44,190 bases of DNA from Sulfurovum sp. (GTDB taxonomy: Bacteria; Campylobacterota; Campylobacteria; Campylobacterales; Sulfurovaceae): assembly GCA_026982075.1 (NCBI GenBank), contig JALSHU010000094.1, forward strand, positions 1 through 44,190, in the 5' to 3' direction. A model generated the notes under the pieces. The model searched no databases. It had not been told where the DNA came from and saw only the letters and a program-made list of their open reading frames with translations. Numbering within the stretch: position 1 is the stretch's first letter; each line of letters starts with the position of its first letter. Positions 5,882-25,797 of this stretch are shown in pieces. Both the position numbers and the translations under genes were made by a program.

Positions 5882-7258
5882 ATGAATTTAAAATCTTATT
5901 TGGATCTTTATGAACTACTTAAAAATGATGTCTCAAGCAGAGAAGAGAGGCGGGCATTTGGATTATCCTATGGTTTAGGGAAGAGTCCTCTTGACCAAGT
6001 GATTACTTGGACTTCTAGATATTACAAAAAATTGAAATCACCATTACTCAGTGAGACTTTTTCTTCGTATATGTATGGGGTAACAATGACACTGGTTATT
6101 ATTGCTTTTTTCTTGGGGGTCTTTTCTGGTATTACACTGCTTAGTTATAATGGACATGAACCTGTGAATGTAGTTTATTTTATGGCTATGGTTATTGTAT
6201 TACCACTTTTTACTATGCTATTGACCGTATTATCTATGATAAGGTCACAGAGTGCTCAAAGTATTTTAGTACATATATCCCCCGCATATTGGTTGGAAAA
6301 AATGTTGGGATTATTACCCAATGCTATGCAAAAAAGTATAGAAACATTCAAAATCAACCCCTTGCTCTCAAATTGGATAGTCATTAAACGTTCACAGCTG
6401 CTAGCTATATTTTTTTCTTTGGGTTTGTTGCTCTCACTTTTAGCTGTCGTAGCTACAAAAGATATTGCTTTTGCCTGGAGTACAACATTGCAAATTACTC
6501 CAGAGGTATTGCATAGGTATCTTAATTTATTGGCTTTTCCTTGGAGAGAGTTTATCCCAACAGCCGTACCTTCACTGGAGTTGATAGAACAGAGTCAATA
6601 TTTTAGATTGGGTGATTCCCTGAGTGATGAGATGATACACAATGCCTCAAAGCTTGGGGAGTGGTGGAGATTTTTGGTTTTTGCTACACTTTTTTATGCA
6701 CTGTTTCTACGTTTTGTTTTATATCTTGTCTCTCTTTTGGGTTACCATCTGGCACTGCAAAAATCATTGATGGGTTTAGAAGGGGTAAACACTTTATTGC
6801 GTGATATGAATGAGCCTATTATTTCTACACACGCATTACATGTAGAGAAGATATCCTCTGCTGTGCAGAAAAACATACAACATATCCAAAAATTGGATAC
6901 TTCATATGATGTCGTACAAGGATGGGCGATACCTCTTTCAAAACTTACTGTGGTAATTGACAGTATGGAGGTGATTACTCCAAATATTTTTGAAGTAGGA
7001 GGTGGAAATACTCTGGAAGAAGACAGTGAAATTGTGCATAAAAGTTTTGGAGAGGTTTTATTGTATGTAAAAGCATGGGAGCCACCAACCATGGATTTTT
7101 TAGATTATCTTGAGATACTTTTAGAATCTGTAGATAAAGTTATCGTTTGTCCCATCGGTACAGAAGAAGAGTCATACAAGGCAAAAGCAAAATGGGTAGA
7201 TATTTGGGTTCAAAAACTCTCTTTACTTCACAATAAAAAACTATGGGTCAAGATATGA
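5882..7258 (+). CDS. DUF2868-type multi-TM membrane protein
   Basis: 458 aa with several TM segments; overlaps the downstream DUF3482-like GTPase, the usual neighbour of this family. Confidence 0.75.
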   Translation: MNLKSYLDLYELLKNDVSSREERRAFGLSYGLGKSPLDQVITWTSRYYKKLKSPLLSETFSSYMYGVTMTLVIIAFFLGVFSGITLLSYNGHEPVNVVYFMAMVIVLPLFTMLLTVLSMIRSQSAQSILVHISPAYWLEKMLGLLPNAMQKSIETFKINPLLSNWIVIKRSQLLAIFFSLGLLLSLLAVVATKDIAFAWSTTLQITPEVLHRYLNLLAFPWREFIPTAVPSLELIEQSQYFRLGDSLSDEMIHNASKLGEWWRFLVFATLFYALFLRFVLYLVSLLGYHLALQKSLMGLEGVNTLLRDMNEPIISTHALHVEKISSAVQKNIQHIQKLDTSYDVVQGWAIPLSKLTVVIDSMEVITPNIFEVGGGNTLEEDSEIVHKSFGEVLLYVKAWEPPTMDFLDYLEILLESVDKVIVCPIGTEEESYKAKAKWVDIWVQKLSLLHNKKLWVKI

Positions 7259-8652
7259 TGAAAAAACATCCACGTTTCGCCGTTGTCGGGCATCCTAACA
7301 AAGGAAAAAGTTCTATTGTTTCTGCTTTGGCATTGGATGATACCGTACAAATATCTGATATCCCTGGCACAACGAATAAACAAAGATCTTTTCCTTTGAA
7401 AGTGGATGGAAAAATACTCTATGAACTTATAGACACTCCAGGATTTCAAAGAGCAAGACGTGTTTTAGCATGGTTAGAAAAACATGATGTTTCTGCAGAT
7501 AAAAAGCATGACGTTGTACAAATGTTCATCACTGAGCATAGAGGTGACTCTCAGTTTAATGATGAATTAGAATTATTGGAGCCTATTATGCAAGGAGCAG
7601 GGATTATCTATGTTGTAGATGCTTCTAAACCTTATGGAAAAGAGTACGAGGCAGAGATGGAAGTATTACGTTGGACTGGGCAACCTTCTATGGCATTGAT
7701 TAATCATATAGAAGAAACAGATTATTCGTCTGAATGGAAGAGGGCTCTTGGACAATATTTTAAAATGGTACGTACTTTTAATCCTATGACAACAAATATA
7801 GAACAACATGTCAGTATTCTAGAAAGTATGGCTCAATTAAAAGAAGAGTGGATAGCACCTGTTAAAGAGTCCATAAAACTTTTTGAGAGGTATCAAGAAC
7901 AAAGAATCGAAGAGAGTAGTCAAGTCATTACACAATTGATTTATGATGCACTTTCTCATGTGGAAGAACTCTCCTTGTCAGAGGAAGAAACTACTACAGA
8001 TGAGAAAGAGAGGCTTGAAGAACAGTACAAACAATATCTCCGAAAGCTTGAAATAGCCACACAAAAGAAGATAGAAAAAATATGGAATCATGATAATTTA
8101 CAAAAAAAGCAAACATTTTTGACTTTTAAAAATTTAGATCTTTTTTCTGAAGAATCTGCATCAGTATTTGGTTTGACACGTAAAGAACTTTTGATTACTG
8201 GAGCAACAAGTGGTGCCATAACAGGAGCAGGGATAGACTTGTTATTTGCTGGACATACTCTTTTACTTGGCGGTACAATAGGGGCTCTAGTCGGAGGGGC
8301 AGGAGCATATTTTGGTTTTAATGAACTTTCAGAGATAAAAGTAATGGGACAGCTGTTAGGGAAGCGTTATTTACAAATGGGTCCTATGAAAAATAGAAAT
8401 TTTTCTTATATTATATTGGGACGTGCTCTTTTTCATACAAGTAGTATTGCTACACGTTCACATGCAATACGCAGCGTGGCAGAACTTTCTATGGAAAATG
8501 CATTCAAAGAGAAATGGTTAGATGATAGCTTAAGAACATCTTTGGAAAAATATCACAAAAAATTTCGCTCTTTAGATGAAATAAATAATGAAACTTTGAA
8601 AGAGTATGAAACACTTATTAAAAATATATTATTCAAGTTGATAAGGCATTAA
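7255..8652 (+). CDS. Era/HflX-like GTPase with C-terminal DUF3482-type domain
   Basis: G1 GHPNKGKSS, G3 DTPG, Gly-rich C-terminal hydrophobic hairpin (GATSGAITGAGIDLLFAGHTLLLGGTIGALVGGAGA). ATGA overlap with the upstream stop; alternative in-frame ATG at 7243. Confidence 0.82.
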   Translation: MMKKHPRFAVVGHPNKGKSSIVSALALDDTVQISDIPGTTNKQRSFPLKVDGKILYELIDTPGFQRARRVLAWLEKHDVSADKKHDVVQMFITEHRGDSQFNDELELLEPIMQGAGIIYVVDASKPYGKEYEAEMEVLRWTGQPSMALINHIEETDYSSEWKRALGQYFKMVRTFNPMTTNIEQHVSILESMAQLKEEWIAPVKESIKLFERYQEQRIEESSQVITQLIYDALSHVEELSLSEEETTTDEKERLEEQYKQYLRKLEIATQKKIEKIWNHDNLQKKQTFLTFKNLDLFSEESASVFGLTRKELLITGATSGAITGAGIDLLFAGHTLLLGGTIGALVGGAGAYFGFNELSEIKVMGQLLGKRYLQMGPMKNRNFSYIILGRALFHTSSIATRSHAIRSVAELSMENAFKEKWLDDSLRTSLEKYHKKFRSLDEINNETLKEYETLIKNILFKLIRH

Positions 8653-9148: not shown

Positions 9149-10330
9149 CTAAGTAAGAGATGAGGTTTGATAGAGTTCAATCAGTTTAAGATAAAACTGT
9201 TCATCACTAGGCTTTTCTAGCAGTCCAGACCCTGGCATTAATGCATAATGCATTTGTTGTAGATTCTCAAAGCGTTCAGGAAAAAGAGCTGCTAAAATAT
9301 TTGCTGAGACTTCTTTCCTAACCAAAATTACAGGGGGGATAACACCAGATTGGATCAACTGCATTATAGAGGCTGAATGGTAGTGTACGTGATGATGTTG
9401 TCCATGTGGACAGGTAGTTGTACTGACAAGTGTATTGCATATATTACAATATACATATTCATCTATAGTTTTTATTTTTATGTTAATGTTTTTACAGTGA
9501 TCAAAGACTGATGCAAGTTTATTTTTATCATAATGGAGACCAAGTCCACTGTGGCTTTTTCCAACAATCAGTTCATGGCAACCATAATTTTTTGCTAAAT
9601 TTGCATCTGAAAATATTTCATTAAATCCTGTAAAGATATAGGTATTTTCAAAAGGGATTATCAGTGTTTTGTTTTTAGGAATATACGTATCAATAAATGT
9701 TTTGAGGGCATTGTATCTTATATCATATCTTAATGCATCCATTGTAAATGGTTTACGTAAAAAGATAATGAGTAAATCTGACTCAGCGATGGTTTGTCTT
9801 ATCATCCTTTCATGTGCACGGTTTAGTGGACTCGCAGTAAGCATAATAGAAGAGACAAACTTGGCTCCAGTTGCAGCTATTATCTCATTTACACGTTTTT
9901 TATTGTCTTCGATAATAGGGTAATCTACATGATATTCCCCACACACAGCCAGTTCTCCAAGTCTGGCCAATGTATTTTTTACACCCGGATGTGAGGGATC
10001 TGTTGTACCATAAATATTTTGAAGCCGTTTTGTAAAATTGATAGGGAATGTTTCATCTACAATAATTTCACCTACCTTTCTTTTTTCACATATAAGATCT
10101 ACAGTTTCACCATGCTCTAGATTTGTAAGTACCCCGTGGTTTTTCTTTCCTTTCGGAGCCAGTACAAAAGCAAAAGGGAAAGGTACACCTTTATATACTT
10201 TTGTTTCATTGACTTCTCTGGCTTCAAGTTTGTTCATGAGCCTGTCAATAGGTGCCATGAGTCCTGCTTGAACTAAGGCCAATGTAGAAAGGGCTTCTGT
10301 ATCTATATAGAGTGATTTACGATTTTGCAT
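9149..10330 (-). CDS. ATP-sulfurylase (Sat)-like protein with altered catalytic motifs
   Basis: Sat-like layout: HPGVKN, RAHE segment, IVGKSHSGLGLHYD, and Cys/His Zn-like region CNICNTLVSTTTCPHGQHHH...; canonical QTRNPxHRAHE reads LTASPLNRAHE. Confidence 0.75.
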   Translation of the reverse strand: MQNRKSLYIDTEALSTLALVQAGLMAPIDRLMNKLEAREVNETKVYKGVPFPFAFVLAPKGKKNHGVLTNLEHGETVDLICEKRKVGEIIVDETFPINFTKRLQNIYGTTDPSHPGVKNTLARLGELAVCGEYHVDYPIIEDNKKRVNEIIAATGAKFVSSIMLTASPLNRAHERMIRQTIAESDLLIIFLRKPFTMDALRYDIRYNALKTFIDTYIPKNKTLIIPFENTYIFTGFNEIFSDANLAKNYGCHELIVGKSHSGLGLHYDKNKLASVFDHCKNINIKIKTIDEYVYCNICNTLVSTTTCPHGQHHHVHYHSASIMQLIQSGVIPPVILVRKEVSANILAALFPERFENLQQMHYALMPGSGLLEKPSDEQFYLKLIELYQTSSLT

Positions 10331-10357: not shown

Positions 10358-11239
10358 TTATTTTTTTTTGAATAAACCATACTTTTTTCTTTTTTCCCAT
10401 AAACTTTTTCTTGAAATACCTAATTTTTTTGAGAGTTCAGTATCTGGAAATTTATATTGAAAACTGTTTACAATAAATTTAACATAGTCGTCAATGGTTA
10501 AAATTTCATTTTGGTCATAAAGCTTTGAATCGGTGTTAAGTGTAATGGTTTCAAATTCTGACTCCAATCCCGAAGTACTGCAAAGTATAAAGTCATAGTC
10601 TTTTAACAGTTCTAGTAAATATTCTTTATCTGATTTTTTAAGTGTCTGTATTTCTGTAACATAGAGTAGAGATTCGCTTGAGCTAGAGAGAATTTTTTCC
10701 TTCCATGCTTTGTCTGAAAGAGGAACAAAAGCTAAAAGTTTATTTTTTTCTTTTGCATATTCGAAAACAATTTTGTCAACCAATCTATGATAGTTTGTTT
10801 CGATGACAAGAGGTGTAAGGATCTTATCGATACGTGCATCTGTTTTGATTTCTTTGAGGAGGTTTTCCAAATACTCTTCATAGAGTATTGTACGTTTTTT
10901 AAGTTGCTGGAATTCTTGATAGTGTCCTATTTTTCGTATCAATTCCTCAATCATAAATGGTTTGACGATATAGTCTTTTGCCCCTTGTTTAAGTGGTCTA
11001 CTTACTGTATCATTGTTAATATAGTTAACCATAAGGATGATAATTTTGTCTTTACATTGTTTAATCAGTGGTTCAGTCGTTTGTCCAGGCATATTGGTAG
11101 AGAGAAGATAAACGTCTCCATTAGATTTCATTGCTTCTTTGGTTGAGCTATAGATTTCTGTTTCAAAGCTATTTTCATTTAATTTTGAAGCAATGCTTTG
11201 CGCCAAATAAAGTTCATTTTCCACAATAATAATTTTCAT
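10358..11239 (-). CDS. Response regulator: receiver domain, degenerate middle domain, C-terminal Fis-type HTH
   Basis: MKIIIVENELYLAQSIASKL; receiver core with LKQGAKDYIVKPF; C-terminal ELSKKLGISRKSLWEKRKKYGL (Fis/NtrC HTH). Confidence 0.82.
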   Translation of the reverse strand: MKIIIVENELYLAQSIASKLNENSFETEIYSSTKEAMKSNGDVYLLSTNMPGQTTEPLIKQCKDKIIILMVNYINNDTVSRPLKQGAKDYIVKPFMIEELIRKIGHYQEFQQLKKRTILYEEYLENLLKEIKTDARIDKILTPLVIETNYHRLVDKIVFEYAKEKNKLLAFVPLSDKAWKEKILSSSSESLLYVTEIQTLKKSDKEYLLELLKDYDFILCSTSGLESEFETITLNTDSKLYDQNEILTIDDYVKFIVNSFQYKFPDTELSKKLGISRKSLWEKRKKYGLFKKK

Positions 11240-12357
11240 AATTTTTTCCAGTTCATATAATGTAAATTTGCAACTGCATGTACAGTCACACCTTCTTTTC
11301 GTCCTACAAAACCAAGCTTTTCTGCCGTAGTTGCTTTAATATTCACATGGTTTTTTCGTATACCCAATAAGTCAGCGAGGGTTGTCCTCATCTTGGACTT
11401 ATAGGGTAAAATTTTTGGGCTCTCCGCCATGATAGTAAGATCAATATTGTTGATAACATACCCAAAGGATTGAATACGTTTTACAGTATCACCCAAGAGT
11501 ACTTTCGAATCAGCTCCTGAATACAGCTGTTCTGTGTCAGGGTAAAGTTCGCCTATATCACCCATACCTGCTGCACCTAAAAGAGCATCTATAAGTGCAT
11601 GGATAGCGACATCCCCGTCACTATGGGCTTTAAAACCATAGTCCACATCTATAGGCACACCACAGAGAAACATTTCCTTCTTATCCTCAAAAGGATGGAT
11701 ATCTATGCCAAAACCAGTGAGTGTTTTGTTAGATGGAGCATGGAGACATGTTACTTTTTGTAGGTCTTCAAGGGTGGTGATTTTATGTGCTTTTGTTGAG
11801 CCTTCCACGAAGTGTATTCTCTCGCCAAGAGAGGCAATAGCAGAAGAGTCATCAGTAAATAGTGTTTCAGTTTGTAATGCTTTTTGAAGAAGTTTTGTAC
11901 GGGAGAGTTGAGGTGTCTGTATCATTTTGACTTTTTCTCTGTCTATGGGTTGGTTGTCAAGGTAGAGTGTATCGGTTACAGGTAGTATGGGGACAACACA
12001 TGAAGCTTTTTCTTTAGCATCCAAGATACGTTGTATCATATCTGAAGGCACACAGCATCTTGCGATATCAGATACTAGTACGTACTCAGAAGTCACGTAT
12101 GCAAGTGCATTTGTGAGAGAAGCTTGTCTACTGTTACCACCCTGCACATAAGTATACTCAGCAAAGTGTTTCATCGCAGTGATTTCTTCTTGTGTAGAAA
12201 CGATGATAATATCATCAAAAGAACTGATACTTTCGAAGCGTTCTGCCACATAGAGCCACAAAGGGGTATCATCGGTATAAATCCACTGTTTTTTAACATC
12301 AGCAGTAAAGCGAGATGAGCTTCCGGCACCTAAAAGTATTAATGTAGTGTTAGACAA
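11236..12357 (-). CDS. ispDF: Bifunctional IspD/IspF (CDP-ME synthase / MEcPP synthase)
   Basis: N-terminal LLGAGSSSRF nucleotidyltransferase; C-terminal GFGIDIHPF...GVPIDVDYGFKAHSDGDVAIHALIDALLGAAGMGDIGELYPD. Confidence 0.95.
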   Translation of the reverse strand: MSNTTLILLGAGSSSRFTADVKKQWIYTDDTPLWLYVAERFESISSFDDIIIVSTQEEITAMKHFAEYTYVQGGNSRQASLTNALAYVTSEYVLVSDIARCCVPSDMIQRILDAKEKASCVVPILPVTDTLYLDNQPIDREKVKMIQTPQLSRTKLLQKALQTETLFTDDSSAIASLGERIHFVEGSTKAHKITTLEDLQKVTCLHAPSNKTLTGFGIDIHPFEDKKEMFLCGVPIDVDYGFKAHSDGDVAIHALIDALLGAAGMGDIGELYPDTEQLYSGADSKVLLGDTVKRIQSFGYVINNIDLTIMAESPKILPYKSKMRTTLADLLGIRKNHVNIKATTAEKLGFVGRKEGVTVHAVANLHYMNWKKL

Positions 12358-21153: not shown

Positions 21154-23055
<1,902 letters not shown>

Positions 23056-23105
23056 ATAATATTGCCGAAGAGATATCTTCGGCTATGAAACAAAGAAGGA
23101 GTACC

Positions 23106-24134
23106 ATGAACATTGGTATCGCAGGTATTGGTCTTGTAGGAAGAGTTTTAGCATTAAATCTGTTACGTCAGGGGCATACTCTCACACTATTTGATGAAGA
23201 TGCAGCTTATGGTGATAAAGCAGCAGGTATGACTGCTGCTGGGATGTTAGCAGTCTTTGCTGAACTAGAAAGTGCGGAGTCTGTGATATTTGAGCATGGT
23301 AATCGTTCTATTGCGCTTTGGCCTGATTTATTAGAGCAGGTGGATGTTTCTGATGCATATCAACAAAAAGGTAGTATTATTACGGCACATCCACAAGACT
23401 ATAATGAACTAGATCATTTTATAGAAACGCTCAAATCTAAAGTGCCAGAAGCCTCAGAAATAAAACTTTTAGACAGGAGAGAACTCACACAGCTTGAACC
23501 AGACTTGGCACAACATGCCAAAGCCTTTTTTATCCCACAAGAAGGACAGGTAGATGCACAACGTTTTATGCAAGCATCAAGTTATTATTTGATGAGACAT
23601 GATAAGGTTAAGTGGCATCAGAATACAAAGGTCTCTGATATCTCTCATGGGGGCATTGTGATAGAAAAAAAAGTGCATCATTTTGATTGGGTATTTGATA
23701 CACGTGGCTTAGGTGCAAATGAACAAGTGGAAAACTTACGTGGTGTAAGAGGAGAAGTGCTTTGGTTAGATGCTCCTGAAGTGAACATTACCAGACCCAC
23801 ACGAATGTTACATCCTCGTTATAAGATTTATATTGTCCCTCGTGAAAATAATCGGTACGTGATAGGTGCTACAGAGATAGAAAGTGAAGATAAAAGTCCT
23901 GTGTCAGTACGCTCTTCTTTAGAATTATTGTCAGCAGTATATAGTATGCACTCTGGATTTGGAGAAGCACGTATCGTTAAGATGCTCACAAATTGTAGAC
24001 CTACACTAAAAGATAACTTACCCAATATAGAACATAGTGAAAAAACAACACGGATTAATGGTCTTTATAGACATGGATATTTACTGGCACCTGCTATAGT
24101 AGAAAAAGCATTAAAGGAAGGAGTTTTAAAATGA
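23106..24134 (+). CDS. thiO: Glycine oxidase ThiO (FAD-dependent)
   Basis: GIAGIGLVGRVLALNLLRQGHTLTLFDED; GAT motif YVIGATEIES; RBS GAAGGAG favours ATG at 23106 over 23085. Confidence 0.88.
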   Translation: MNIGIAGIGLVGRVLALNLLRQGHTLTLFDEDAAYGDKAAGMTAAGMLAVFAELESAESVIFEHGNRSIALWPDLLEQVDVSDAYQQKGSIITAHPQDYNELDHFIETLKSKVPEASEIKLLDRRELTQLEPDLAQHAKAFFIPQEGQVDAQRFMQASSYYLMRHDKVKWHQNTKVSDISHGGIVIEKKVHHFDWVFDTRGLGANEQVENLRGVRGEVLWLDAPEVNITRPTRMLHPRYKIYIVPRENNRYVIGATEIESEDKSPVSVRSSLELLSAVYSMHSGFGEARIVKMLTNCRPTLKDNLPNIEHSEKTTRINGLYRHGYLLAPAIVEKALKEGVLK

Positions 24135-24334
24135 TAGAAGTAATTGTAAATGGAAAAAGAACGACAATTGCAAGTGGCTTAAACATAAAAGAAGCTATCA
24201 CAGCACTTGAGTATAAAGGTGAAGGGTTTGCCTTGGCGCTCAATGGTACTTTTGTGGCAATATCTACTTATGAAACAACCATCGTAAGAGAGAATGACAG
24301 TATAGAAATACTCGCACCTGTTCAAGGTGGATAA
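24131..24334 (+). CDS. thiS: Sulfur carrier protein ThiS
   Basis: 67 aa, ubiquitin-like, C-terminal QGG; between thiO and thiG. Confidence 0.93.
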
Positions 24335-24335
24335 G

Positions 24336-25160
24336 ATGACTAAGTTCATTGAGACGCAACCAGATACATGGGAAATAGGTGGAAAAACTTTAAATTCCAG
24401 GTTGCTCATAGGTTCTGCACTTTATCCAAGTCCTGCCAATATGGAAAATGCCATTAAAATCTCAGGTGCTCAGATAGTCACTGTTTCCCTGCGTCGTCAA
24501 GCAGCAGGGGATACGACATCTAAAGGGGGTCATCAGTTTTGGGATATCATTAAGTCCATGGGGATAGAAGTACTTCCAAATACAGCAGGTTCGCACTCTG
24601 CTAAAGAGGCGATTACTACAGCACAGATGGCACGAGAAGTTTTCGGTACAAATTGGGTCAAACTAGAAGTTATAGGTGATCAGTACAATTTACAACCAGA
24701 CCCTTTTGAGACAGTAAAAGCAGCAGAGATTCTTATAAAAGAAGGTTTTGAGGTATTTCCTTATACAACAGATGATTTAGTAGTGGCTAAAAGATTAGCA
24801 GAGGTTGGATGTAGAATCATTATGCCATGGGGTTCTATGATAGGTTCAGGTAAGGGGCTTATGAACCCAGATAATCTGGTGGCTATTCGTAAACAGTTTC
24901 CTGAACTTAAACTCATTATAGATGCAGGTATCGGCAAACCTTCACATGCTACACAAGCGATGGAACTAGGTTATGATGGCGTGTTGCTTAACTCTGCTAT
25001 AGCTTTAGCACAAGACCCTGTGAAAATGGCTGATGCTTTTAGGGTGGCGGTGGAGGCTGGGCGACTTGGGTATGAAGCAGGGGTAATGAAAGAGAGGGAG
25101 TTTGCTTCACCATCTACACCGACGGTTGGAACACCATTTTGGCATCAATTTGAGGATTAA
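24336..25160 (+). CDS. thiG: Thiazole synthase
   Basis: [58 protein letters not shown] at 24336 preferred over GTG 24327. Confidence 0.95.
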
Positions 25161-25161
25161 A

Positions 25162-25797
25162 ATGAAATTTCCAAAATGTGACCAAATACCTCTAGGTATT
25201 TATCCAGTAGTTGACCGTGCTTACAAATTAAGACCCCTTTATGAAGTAGGCATCACTACAGCACAACTACGGACAAAAGATGCGTTCTCGGGTAAAGAAT
25301 TAGAAGATGAAGTTATAGAAGCTATTAAAATCTCAGAAGAGTTTAATGCACGTTTTTTCCTTAATGACTTTTGGGAATTAGGCATTAAGCATAAAACCTA
25401 TGGTATACACCTAGGACAAGAAGATATCCAAGAAGCAGATGTGAAAGCTATACTTGATGCTGGCATACGCCTTGGTATTAGTTCACATACTCCTAAAGAG
25501 ATAGACATTGCTCTTGGTTTTAAACCAAGTTATTTAGCAATCGGTCCCATTTATGAGCCTATTTCAAAAAAGCTTGTGTATGACACTGTAGGCCCTGAAG
25601 ATTTAAAACATTGGGCTAAAAGTGTGGATTATCCTATCGTAGCTATAGGAGGGATAACTATTGAAAATATTCACAATGTAGCCCAAACAAAAGCAGCATC
25701 TGGGATAGCGATGATTTCAGATGTTTTGGAAAATGGTGAAGTTTCTAAAGAAAAAACTGTTGCATTGATGGAAGTATTTGAAAAATATTCATTGTAA
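25162..25797 (+). CDS. thiE: Thiamine-phosphate synthase
   Basis: TTAQLRTKD, FFLNDFWELG, GIHLGQED, LGISSHT, AIGPIY, AIGGIT; ATG 25162. Confidence 0.93.
   Translation: MKFPKCDQIPLGIYPVVDRAYKLRPLYEVGITTAQLRTKDAFSGKELEDEVIEAIKISEEFNARFFLNDFWELGIKHKTYGIHLGQEDIQEADVKAILDAGIRLGISSHTPKEIDIALGFKPSYLAIGPIYEPISKKLVYDTVGPEDLKHWAKSVDYPIVAIGGITIENIHNVAQTKAASGIAMISDVLENGEVSKEKTVALMEVFEKYSL

What the first reader, a model, noticed from the sequence alone, without database searches (positions are those of the whole stretch)
9149..10330. ATP-sulfurylase homolog with eroded active site, co-existing with CysDN
By eye, the Sat motif QTRNPxHRAHE aligns with LTASPLNRAHE: the catalytic Gln, Arg, Asn and first His are replaced, and GRDHAG reads GKSHSG, while the Zn-like CxxC...CPHG..HH region is kept. 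A genuine ATP sulfurylase (CysDN) lies ~5 kb away. This protein is probably repurposed (other nucleotidyl transfer, or sensing) and likely misannotated as Sat.
Basis: partly seen in the sequence, partly recalled or inferred. Interest (0 to 1): 0.6.

Follow-up and report, generated by a model that had tools for sequence, protein, structure and literature searches.

The report
Phylum-wide ATP-sulfurylase look-alike, repurposed
A protein labelled as a sulfate-activating enzyme across Campylobacterota has lost the residues that hold sulfate, yet it is kept under strong selection in one conserved operon and scored as essential in Campylobacter jejuni and C. coli, so the label is almost certainly wrong and its real job is unknown.

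Summary
The ORF at 9149-10330(-) belongs to a single-copy, monophyletic family found in about 305 of 397 sampled Campylobacterota genomes. The fold is that of ATP sulfurylase. In all 141 members checked the sulfate-binding Gln and Arg are gone, and in nearly all the GRD Asp and the pyrophosphate Arg too. Of the active site only the second His of HxxH is kept (170 of 171); the Zn ligands also stay. Conservation has moved from the catalytic domain to domain III, around a new, nearly invariant CPHGxHHHxxY motif. dN/dS is about 0.1, so this is not decay. The gene sits in a conserved ispDF-cemR-[gene]-pgpA operon. About two thirds of tested carriers lack CysN and 48 of 61 lack APS reductase. Six sampled genomes carry a canonical Sat, five of them alongside this gene. 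RefSeq and published inventories call it Sat. The C. jejuni member (Cj1609) is reported essential in C. jejuni and C. coli by TraDIS, though polarity on pgpA is possible. Most likely it is a neofunctionalised nucleotidyltransferase with another acceptor; the main rival is a non-catalytic Zn/His scaffold or sensor.

The parts
9149..10330 (-). Sat-like protein, 393 aa (taken to be the ortholog of C. jejuni Cj1609, from gene order)
   Evidence: ORF; PF01747 158 bits and PUA_2; found in 306 of 397 phylum genomes, one of them (G122) a canonical Sat instead
9935..10321 (-). Domain I, PUA-like (residues 4-132)
   Evidence: Pfam PF14306, 50.7 bits
9293..9901 (-). ATP-sulfurylase Pfam domain (residues 144-346)
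   Evidence: Pfam PF01747; AlphaFold model, pLDDT 82, matches Sat structures 8a8d and 1v47 with TM about 0.75
9809..9841 (-). Remodelled QxRN/HxxH loop, residues 164-174 LTASPLNRAHE: sulfate Gln and Arg lost, second His (H173) kept
   Evidence: Alignment of 141-171 family members with 17-18 Sat rows
9545..9562 (-). Remodelled GRD loop, residues 257-262 GKSHSG
   Evidence: the loop His is lost in many members of genome family f2
9377..9448 (-). Domain III Zn knuckle plus new His/Tyr cluster, residues 295-318 (CxxC..CPHGxHHHxxY)
   Evidence: C295, C298, C307, P308, H309, G310 and Y317 in 171 of 171; H312 in 170, H314 in 169. The three Cys and H309 are shared with most Sats; H312, the HHH run and Y317 are not
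9362..9364 (-). Residue 323 (Met), equivalent of the pyrophosphate-binding Arg365 of Sat
   Evidence: M/L/K/F/I in 137 of 141 family members, Arg in all 18 Sat rows
9152..9262 (-). C-terminal tail, residues 357-393, with nearly invariant FY...L, not alignable to Sat
10358..11239 (-). CemR-type atypical response regulator, upstream gene of the operon
   Evidence: Pfam Response_reg; conserved neighbour
11236..12357 (-). ispDF, first gene of the operon
   Evidence: NCBIfam NF006899, 488.8 bits
8649..9143 (-). pgpA, downstream gene of the operon
   Evidence: Pfam PgpA PF04608, 136 bits
14711..17762 (+). cysH-cysD-cysN, the genome's genuine sulfate-activation and reduction genes (context, not part of the operon)
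   Evidence: NCBIfam CysD 535 bits, CysN 747 bits, PAPS/APS reductase 293 bits

Best explanation
This is a Campylobacterota-wide paralogue of ATP sulfurylase that no longer activates sulfate. Shown: the fold is kept, the sulfate and pyrophosphate contacts of Sat are replaced across the family, and selection is strong. Inferred: it still works as a nucleotidyltransferase of the (H/T)xxH superfamily, using H173, but on a different acceptor. The new domain III CPHGxHHHxxY cluster, which lies just before the helix that forms the old pyrophosphate site in the Sat alignment, would form part of the new site next to the structural zinc. The acceptor is unknown. Operon position suggests a housekeeping role linked to isoprenoid, phospholipid or energy control rather than sulfur.
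For: Structure and profile similarity to Sat. In A. vinosum Sat, Gln199 and Arg201 bind sulfate and Asn202, His205, His208 and Arg365 interact at the pyrophosphate site (PMC3779200). Gln199 and Arg201 are absent from all 141 family members. The active-site residue that is kept is H173 (170 of 171), equivalent to the second His of HxxH. One family member (L057) reads SSFDPFHRAHE and passes the general nucleotidyltransferase Pfam model PF01467 (24.0 against 21 bits); the family profile reaches NMNAT weakly (E 0.07). Domain III is the most conserved part (64% mean identity against 49% for domain II), the reverse of Sat (34% against 55%). dN/dS 0.08-0.10 between the window protein and relatives. 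The family is split from Sat by a long branch with 100/100 support. Operon conserved. Cj1609 reported essential in C. jejuni and C. coli (PMC10077673).
Against: The ribose-contact His of the GRD loop is lost in many members of family f2, so nucleotide binding in the Sat manner is not universal. One sequence (L054) has Gln for H173. The most conserved region is the Zn/His domain, not the nucleotide site. No model coordinates were available, so closeness of the HHH cluster to H173 is inferred from the Sat alignment. The family is cleanly absent from several lineages.
Confidence: 0.5

Rival explanations
1. A non-catalytic protein: the Sat fold is a scaffold, and the Zn knuckle with the HHH/Tyr cluster binds a metal, ligand or partner, acting as a sensor or adaptor, perhaps together with CemR, whose gene overlaps or abuts this one.
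For: Domain III is the conserved core, and the nucleotide site drifts in the f2 family. Tight coupling to cemR, which controls energy metabolism in C. jejuni and A. butzleri (PMC11334517).
Against: H173 and E174 in domain II stay nearly invariant across the phylum. cemR is kept where this gene is missing, so cemR does not depend on it.
Confidence: 0.36
2. A divergent but genuine ATP sulfurylase, as annotated and as proposed for Sulfurimonas in the literature.
For: Same fold and Zn site; annotated as sulfate adenylyltransferase; the Sulfurimonas review assigns its Sat-type enzyme to sulfate assimilation (PMC4584964).
Against: Sulfate-binding Gln and Arg missing in all members. No correlation with CysN. 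48 of 61 tested carriers have no APS reductase match, so APS would have no obvious user there. Canonical Sat co-occurs with it in five genomes and CysDN in others.
Confidence: 0.06
3. A decaying relic of Sat.
For: Loss of catalytic residues; absent from several lineages; one split copy in G049.
Against: dN/dS about 0.1, nearly invariant motifs, phylum-wide retention and reported essentiality.
Confidence: 0.02
4. A displaced essential adenylyltransferase for NAD, CoA or FAD.
For: Domain II shares the fold of NMNAT and PPAT.
Against: CoaD and RibF are found in all 37 tested genomes, with and without this gene; NadD passes its cut-off in 34 of 37, two more fall just short of it, and the one without a clear NadD lacks this gene too.
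Confidence: 0.02

Closest known systems
Sat-type ATP sulfurylase, zinc-binding (Thermus thermophilus 1v47, Methanothermococcus thermolithotrophicus 8a8d)
   Same: Three-domain fold, PUA-like domain I, Rossmann-like domain II, Zn knuckle in domain III; TM about 0.75, 22% identity
   Different: QxRN Gln/Arg, GRD and SGTxxR motifs replaced; new CPHGxHHHxxY cluster and C-terminal tail; different operon context
(H/T)xGH nucleotidyltransferase superfamily (NMNAT, PPAT)
   Same: Domain II fold and retained second His; one tested member passes PF01467
   Different: Extra domains I and III; only weak sequence similarity; acceptor unknown
CysDN sulfate adenylyltransferase
   Same: Has the activity that the annotation implies
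   Different: Unrelated fold; present in this window as separate genes

Membership tests
Sat-type ATP sulfurylase (EC 2.7.7.4) | Homology and fold (PF01747) | tested here: met
   158 bits against 24.3; Foldseek TM about 0.75
Sat-type ATP sulfurylase (EC 2.7.7.4) | NCBIfam Sat cut-offs | tested here: not met
   154 against 387 and 105 against 323 bits; a canonical Sat from the same phylum scores 422 and 328
Sat-type ATP sulfurylase (EC 2.7.7.4) | QxRN sulfate and phosphate loop | tested here: not met
   No Gln or Arg in 141 members
Sat-type ATP sulfurylase (EC 2.7.7.4) | HxxH motif | tested here: inconclusive
   Second His in 170 of 171; first His variable across the family, Asn in this protein
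Sat-type ATP sulfurylase (EC 2.7.7.4) | GRD loop | tested here: not met
   Asp replaced, Asn in 131 of 141
Sat-type ATP sulfurylase (EC 2.7.7.4) | SGTxxR pyrophosphate Arg | tested here: not met
   M/L/K/F/I in 137 of 141
Sat-type ATP sulfurylase (EC 2.7.7.4) | Catalytic activity | not testable with these tools
   Needs purified protein
(H/T)xGH nucleotidyltransferase superfamily | Rossmann-like domain with conserved second His | tested here: met
(H/T)xGH nucleotidyltransferase superfamily | Nucleotide binding and transfer | not testable with these tools
   GRD-loop ribose His kept in 136 of 141 but lost in many f2-family members

The most novel reading that the evidence does not exclude
A phylum-specific enzyme with chemistry new to the ATP-sulfurylase fold, built on the retained H173 and a new Zn/HHH/Tyr centre, carrying out a step that C. 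jejuni and C. coli cannot do without.
Probability: 0.4. Interest if true: 0.75.

Novelty: new variant of a known kind. Interest (0 to 1): 0.57.

Why it matters
It is a core gene of unknown function in a phylum that includes C. jejuni, reported essential there, and hidden behind a wrong name. The label also misleads sulfur-cycle inventories: 305 of 394 sampled Campylobacterota genomes contain a PF01747 protein but only six have a canonical Sat, so a 'sat' call in this phylum is nearly always this protein. Published puzzles about an orphan sat in Sulfurimonas and in a Campylobacterales metagenome probably have this explanation.

Tried and rejected
Thiamine link (thiC often nearby): ThiG shows no correlation with gene presence. 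Sulfate-assimilation link: CysN shows no correlation. Replacement of NadD, CoaD or RibF: those enzymes are present regardless. Literature search for a characterisation of Cj1609 found only the TraDIS paper and one transcriptome mention. The promoter scan was no better than chance. A remnant search in G228 found a broken kdsB-like stretch, not a decayed copy. The first ORF extraction failed because loci were not oriented and was redone. A plasmid record (L212) with a broken Sat ORF was left out of most comparisons.

Full report
OBSERVATION. The ORF at 9149-10330 on the minus strand is real. It hits Pfam ATP-sulfurylase well above cut-off but falls far below the NCBIfam cut-offs for Sat. The AlphaFold model (pLDDT 82) matches Sat structures best. 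CysH-CysD-CysN lie about 4-5 kb away on the other strand.

FAMILY. A search of 397 Campylobacterota genomes found it in 306, nearly always once; one of these (G122) is a canonical Sat. PF01747 was found in 305 of 394 genomes; six proteins stood out as canonical Sat (249-281 bits), five of them in genomes that also carry the Sat-like gene. Named relatives place the window in Sulfurovum. The identification with C. jejuni Cj1609 rests on my knowledge of that genome and on the matching order ispDF (Cj1607) - Cj1608 - sulfate adenyltransferase (Cj1609) in papers. A tree separates the family from 17 Sats with 100/100 support; those Sats are annotated or motif-complete, not assayed here. Whether the family occurs outside Campylobacterota was not fully tested: the genome scan listed only its best 80 of 516 hits, and the plasmid collection gave one true member, in Sulfurovum mangrovi.

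ACTIVE SITE. Residue roles are taken from the A. vinosum enzyme (PMC3779200). Of 141 family members none has the sulfate-binding Gln or Arg; the GRD Asp is Asn in 131; the pyrophosphate Arg is M/L/K/F/I in 137. The loop Asn is kept in 113 and the first His in 29 of this Sulfurovum-heavy set, or 30 of 61 for the His in the phylum-wide set. The second His is kept in 170 of 171. The Zn ligands are kept and a new CPHGxHHHxxY motif is nearly invariant. Mean pairwise identity is 64% for domain III and 49% for domain II, against 34% and 55% in Sats. dN/dS is 0.08-0.10 for pairs with the window protein whose synonymous distance is not saturated.

CONTEXT. In 14 regions examined across families, ispDF lies upstream in 13, with cemR recognised between in ten, and pgpA downstream in most. 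Sulfurovum mangrovi has the same order and RefSeq names the gene sulfate adenylyltransferase. In 11 gene-lacking genomes the order is ispDF-cemR-pgpA with the gene cleanly missing. Presence does not follow ThiG or CysN, and 48 of 61 carriers have no APS reductase match at E 1e-30.

ESSENTIALITY. TraDIS calls Cj1609 essential in C. jejuni and C. coli, and core but not essential in the other two species tested (PMC10077673). Insertions might be polar on pgpA. A deletion of the upstream cemR gene is viable (PMC11334517).

INTERPRETATION. That it is not a working sulfate adenylyltransferase is well supported by sequence, not by assay. The step to a nucleotidyltransferase with a new acceptor is inference: from H173, from the match of one member to the general nucleotidyltransferase model, and from the superfamily's tolerance of a non-His first position (own knowledge, as Thr in PPAT). 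The drift of the GRD loop in family f2 leaves a non-catalytic Zn/His role open.

Noticed in passing
L061:4578-9686, L063:4050-7847: Canonical Sat genes in a few Campylobacterota sit next to an APS kinase and a pyruvate-kinase-barrel protein, with an inositol monophosphatase family protein or a sodium/hydrogen exchanger; possibly a sulfation cluster.
   Followed up: partly
L070:4050-5298: In genome G049 the Sat-like gene is split into 76 and 331 aa ORFs, a frameshift or assembly error.
   Followed up: no
L198:4037-4959: In G228 the Sat-like gene is gone and the space before pgpA holds what looks like a broken kdsB remnant.
   Followed up: partly
window 5882-8652: Overlapping DUF2868 and DUF3482 GTPase genes beside pgpA, a pair of unknown function.
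   Followed up: no
window 21166-25797: Thiamine-type cluster thiC, thiO-like, thiG, thiE; a shorter thiC homologue lies beside ispDF in several relatives.
   Followed up: partly
C. coli OR12, PMC5366326: An aerotolerant passaged strain carried sat A290V among about a dozen mutations; not shown to be causal, and identity with this gene is assumed.
   Followed up: no
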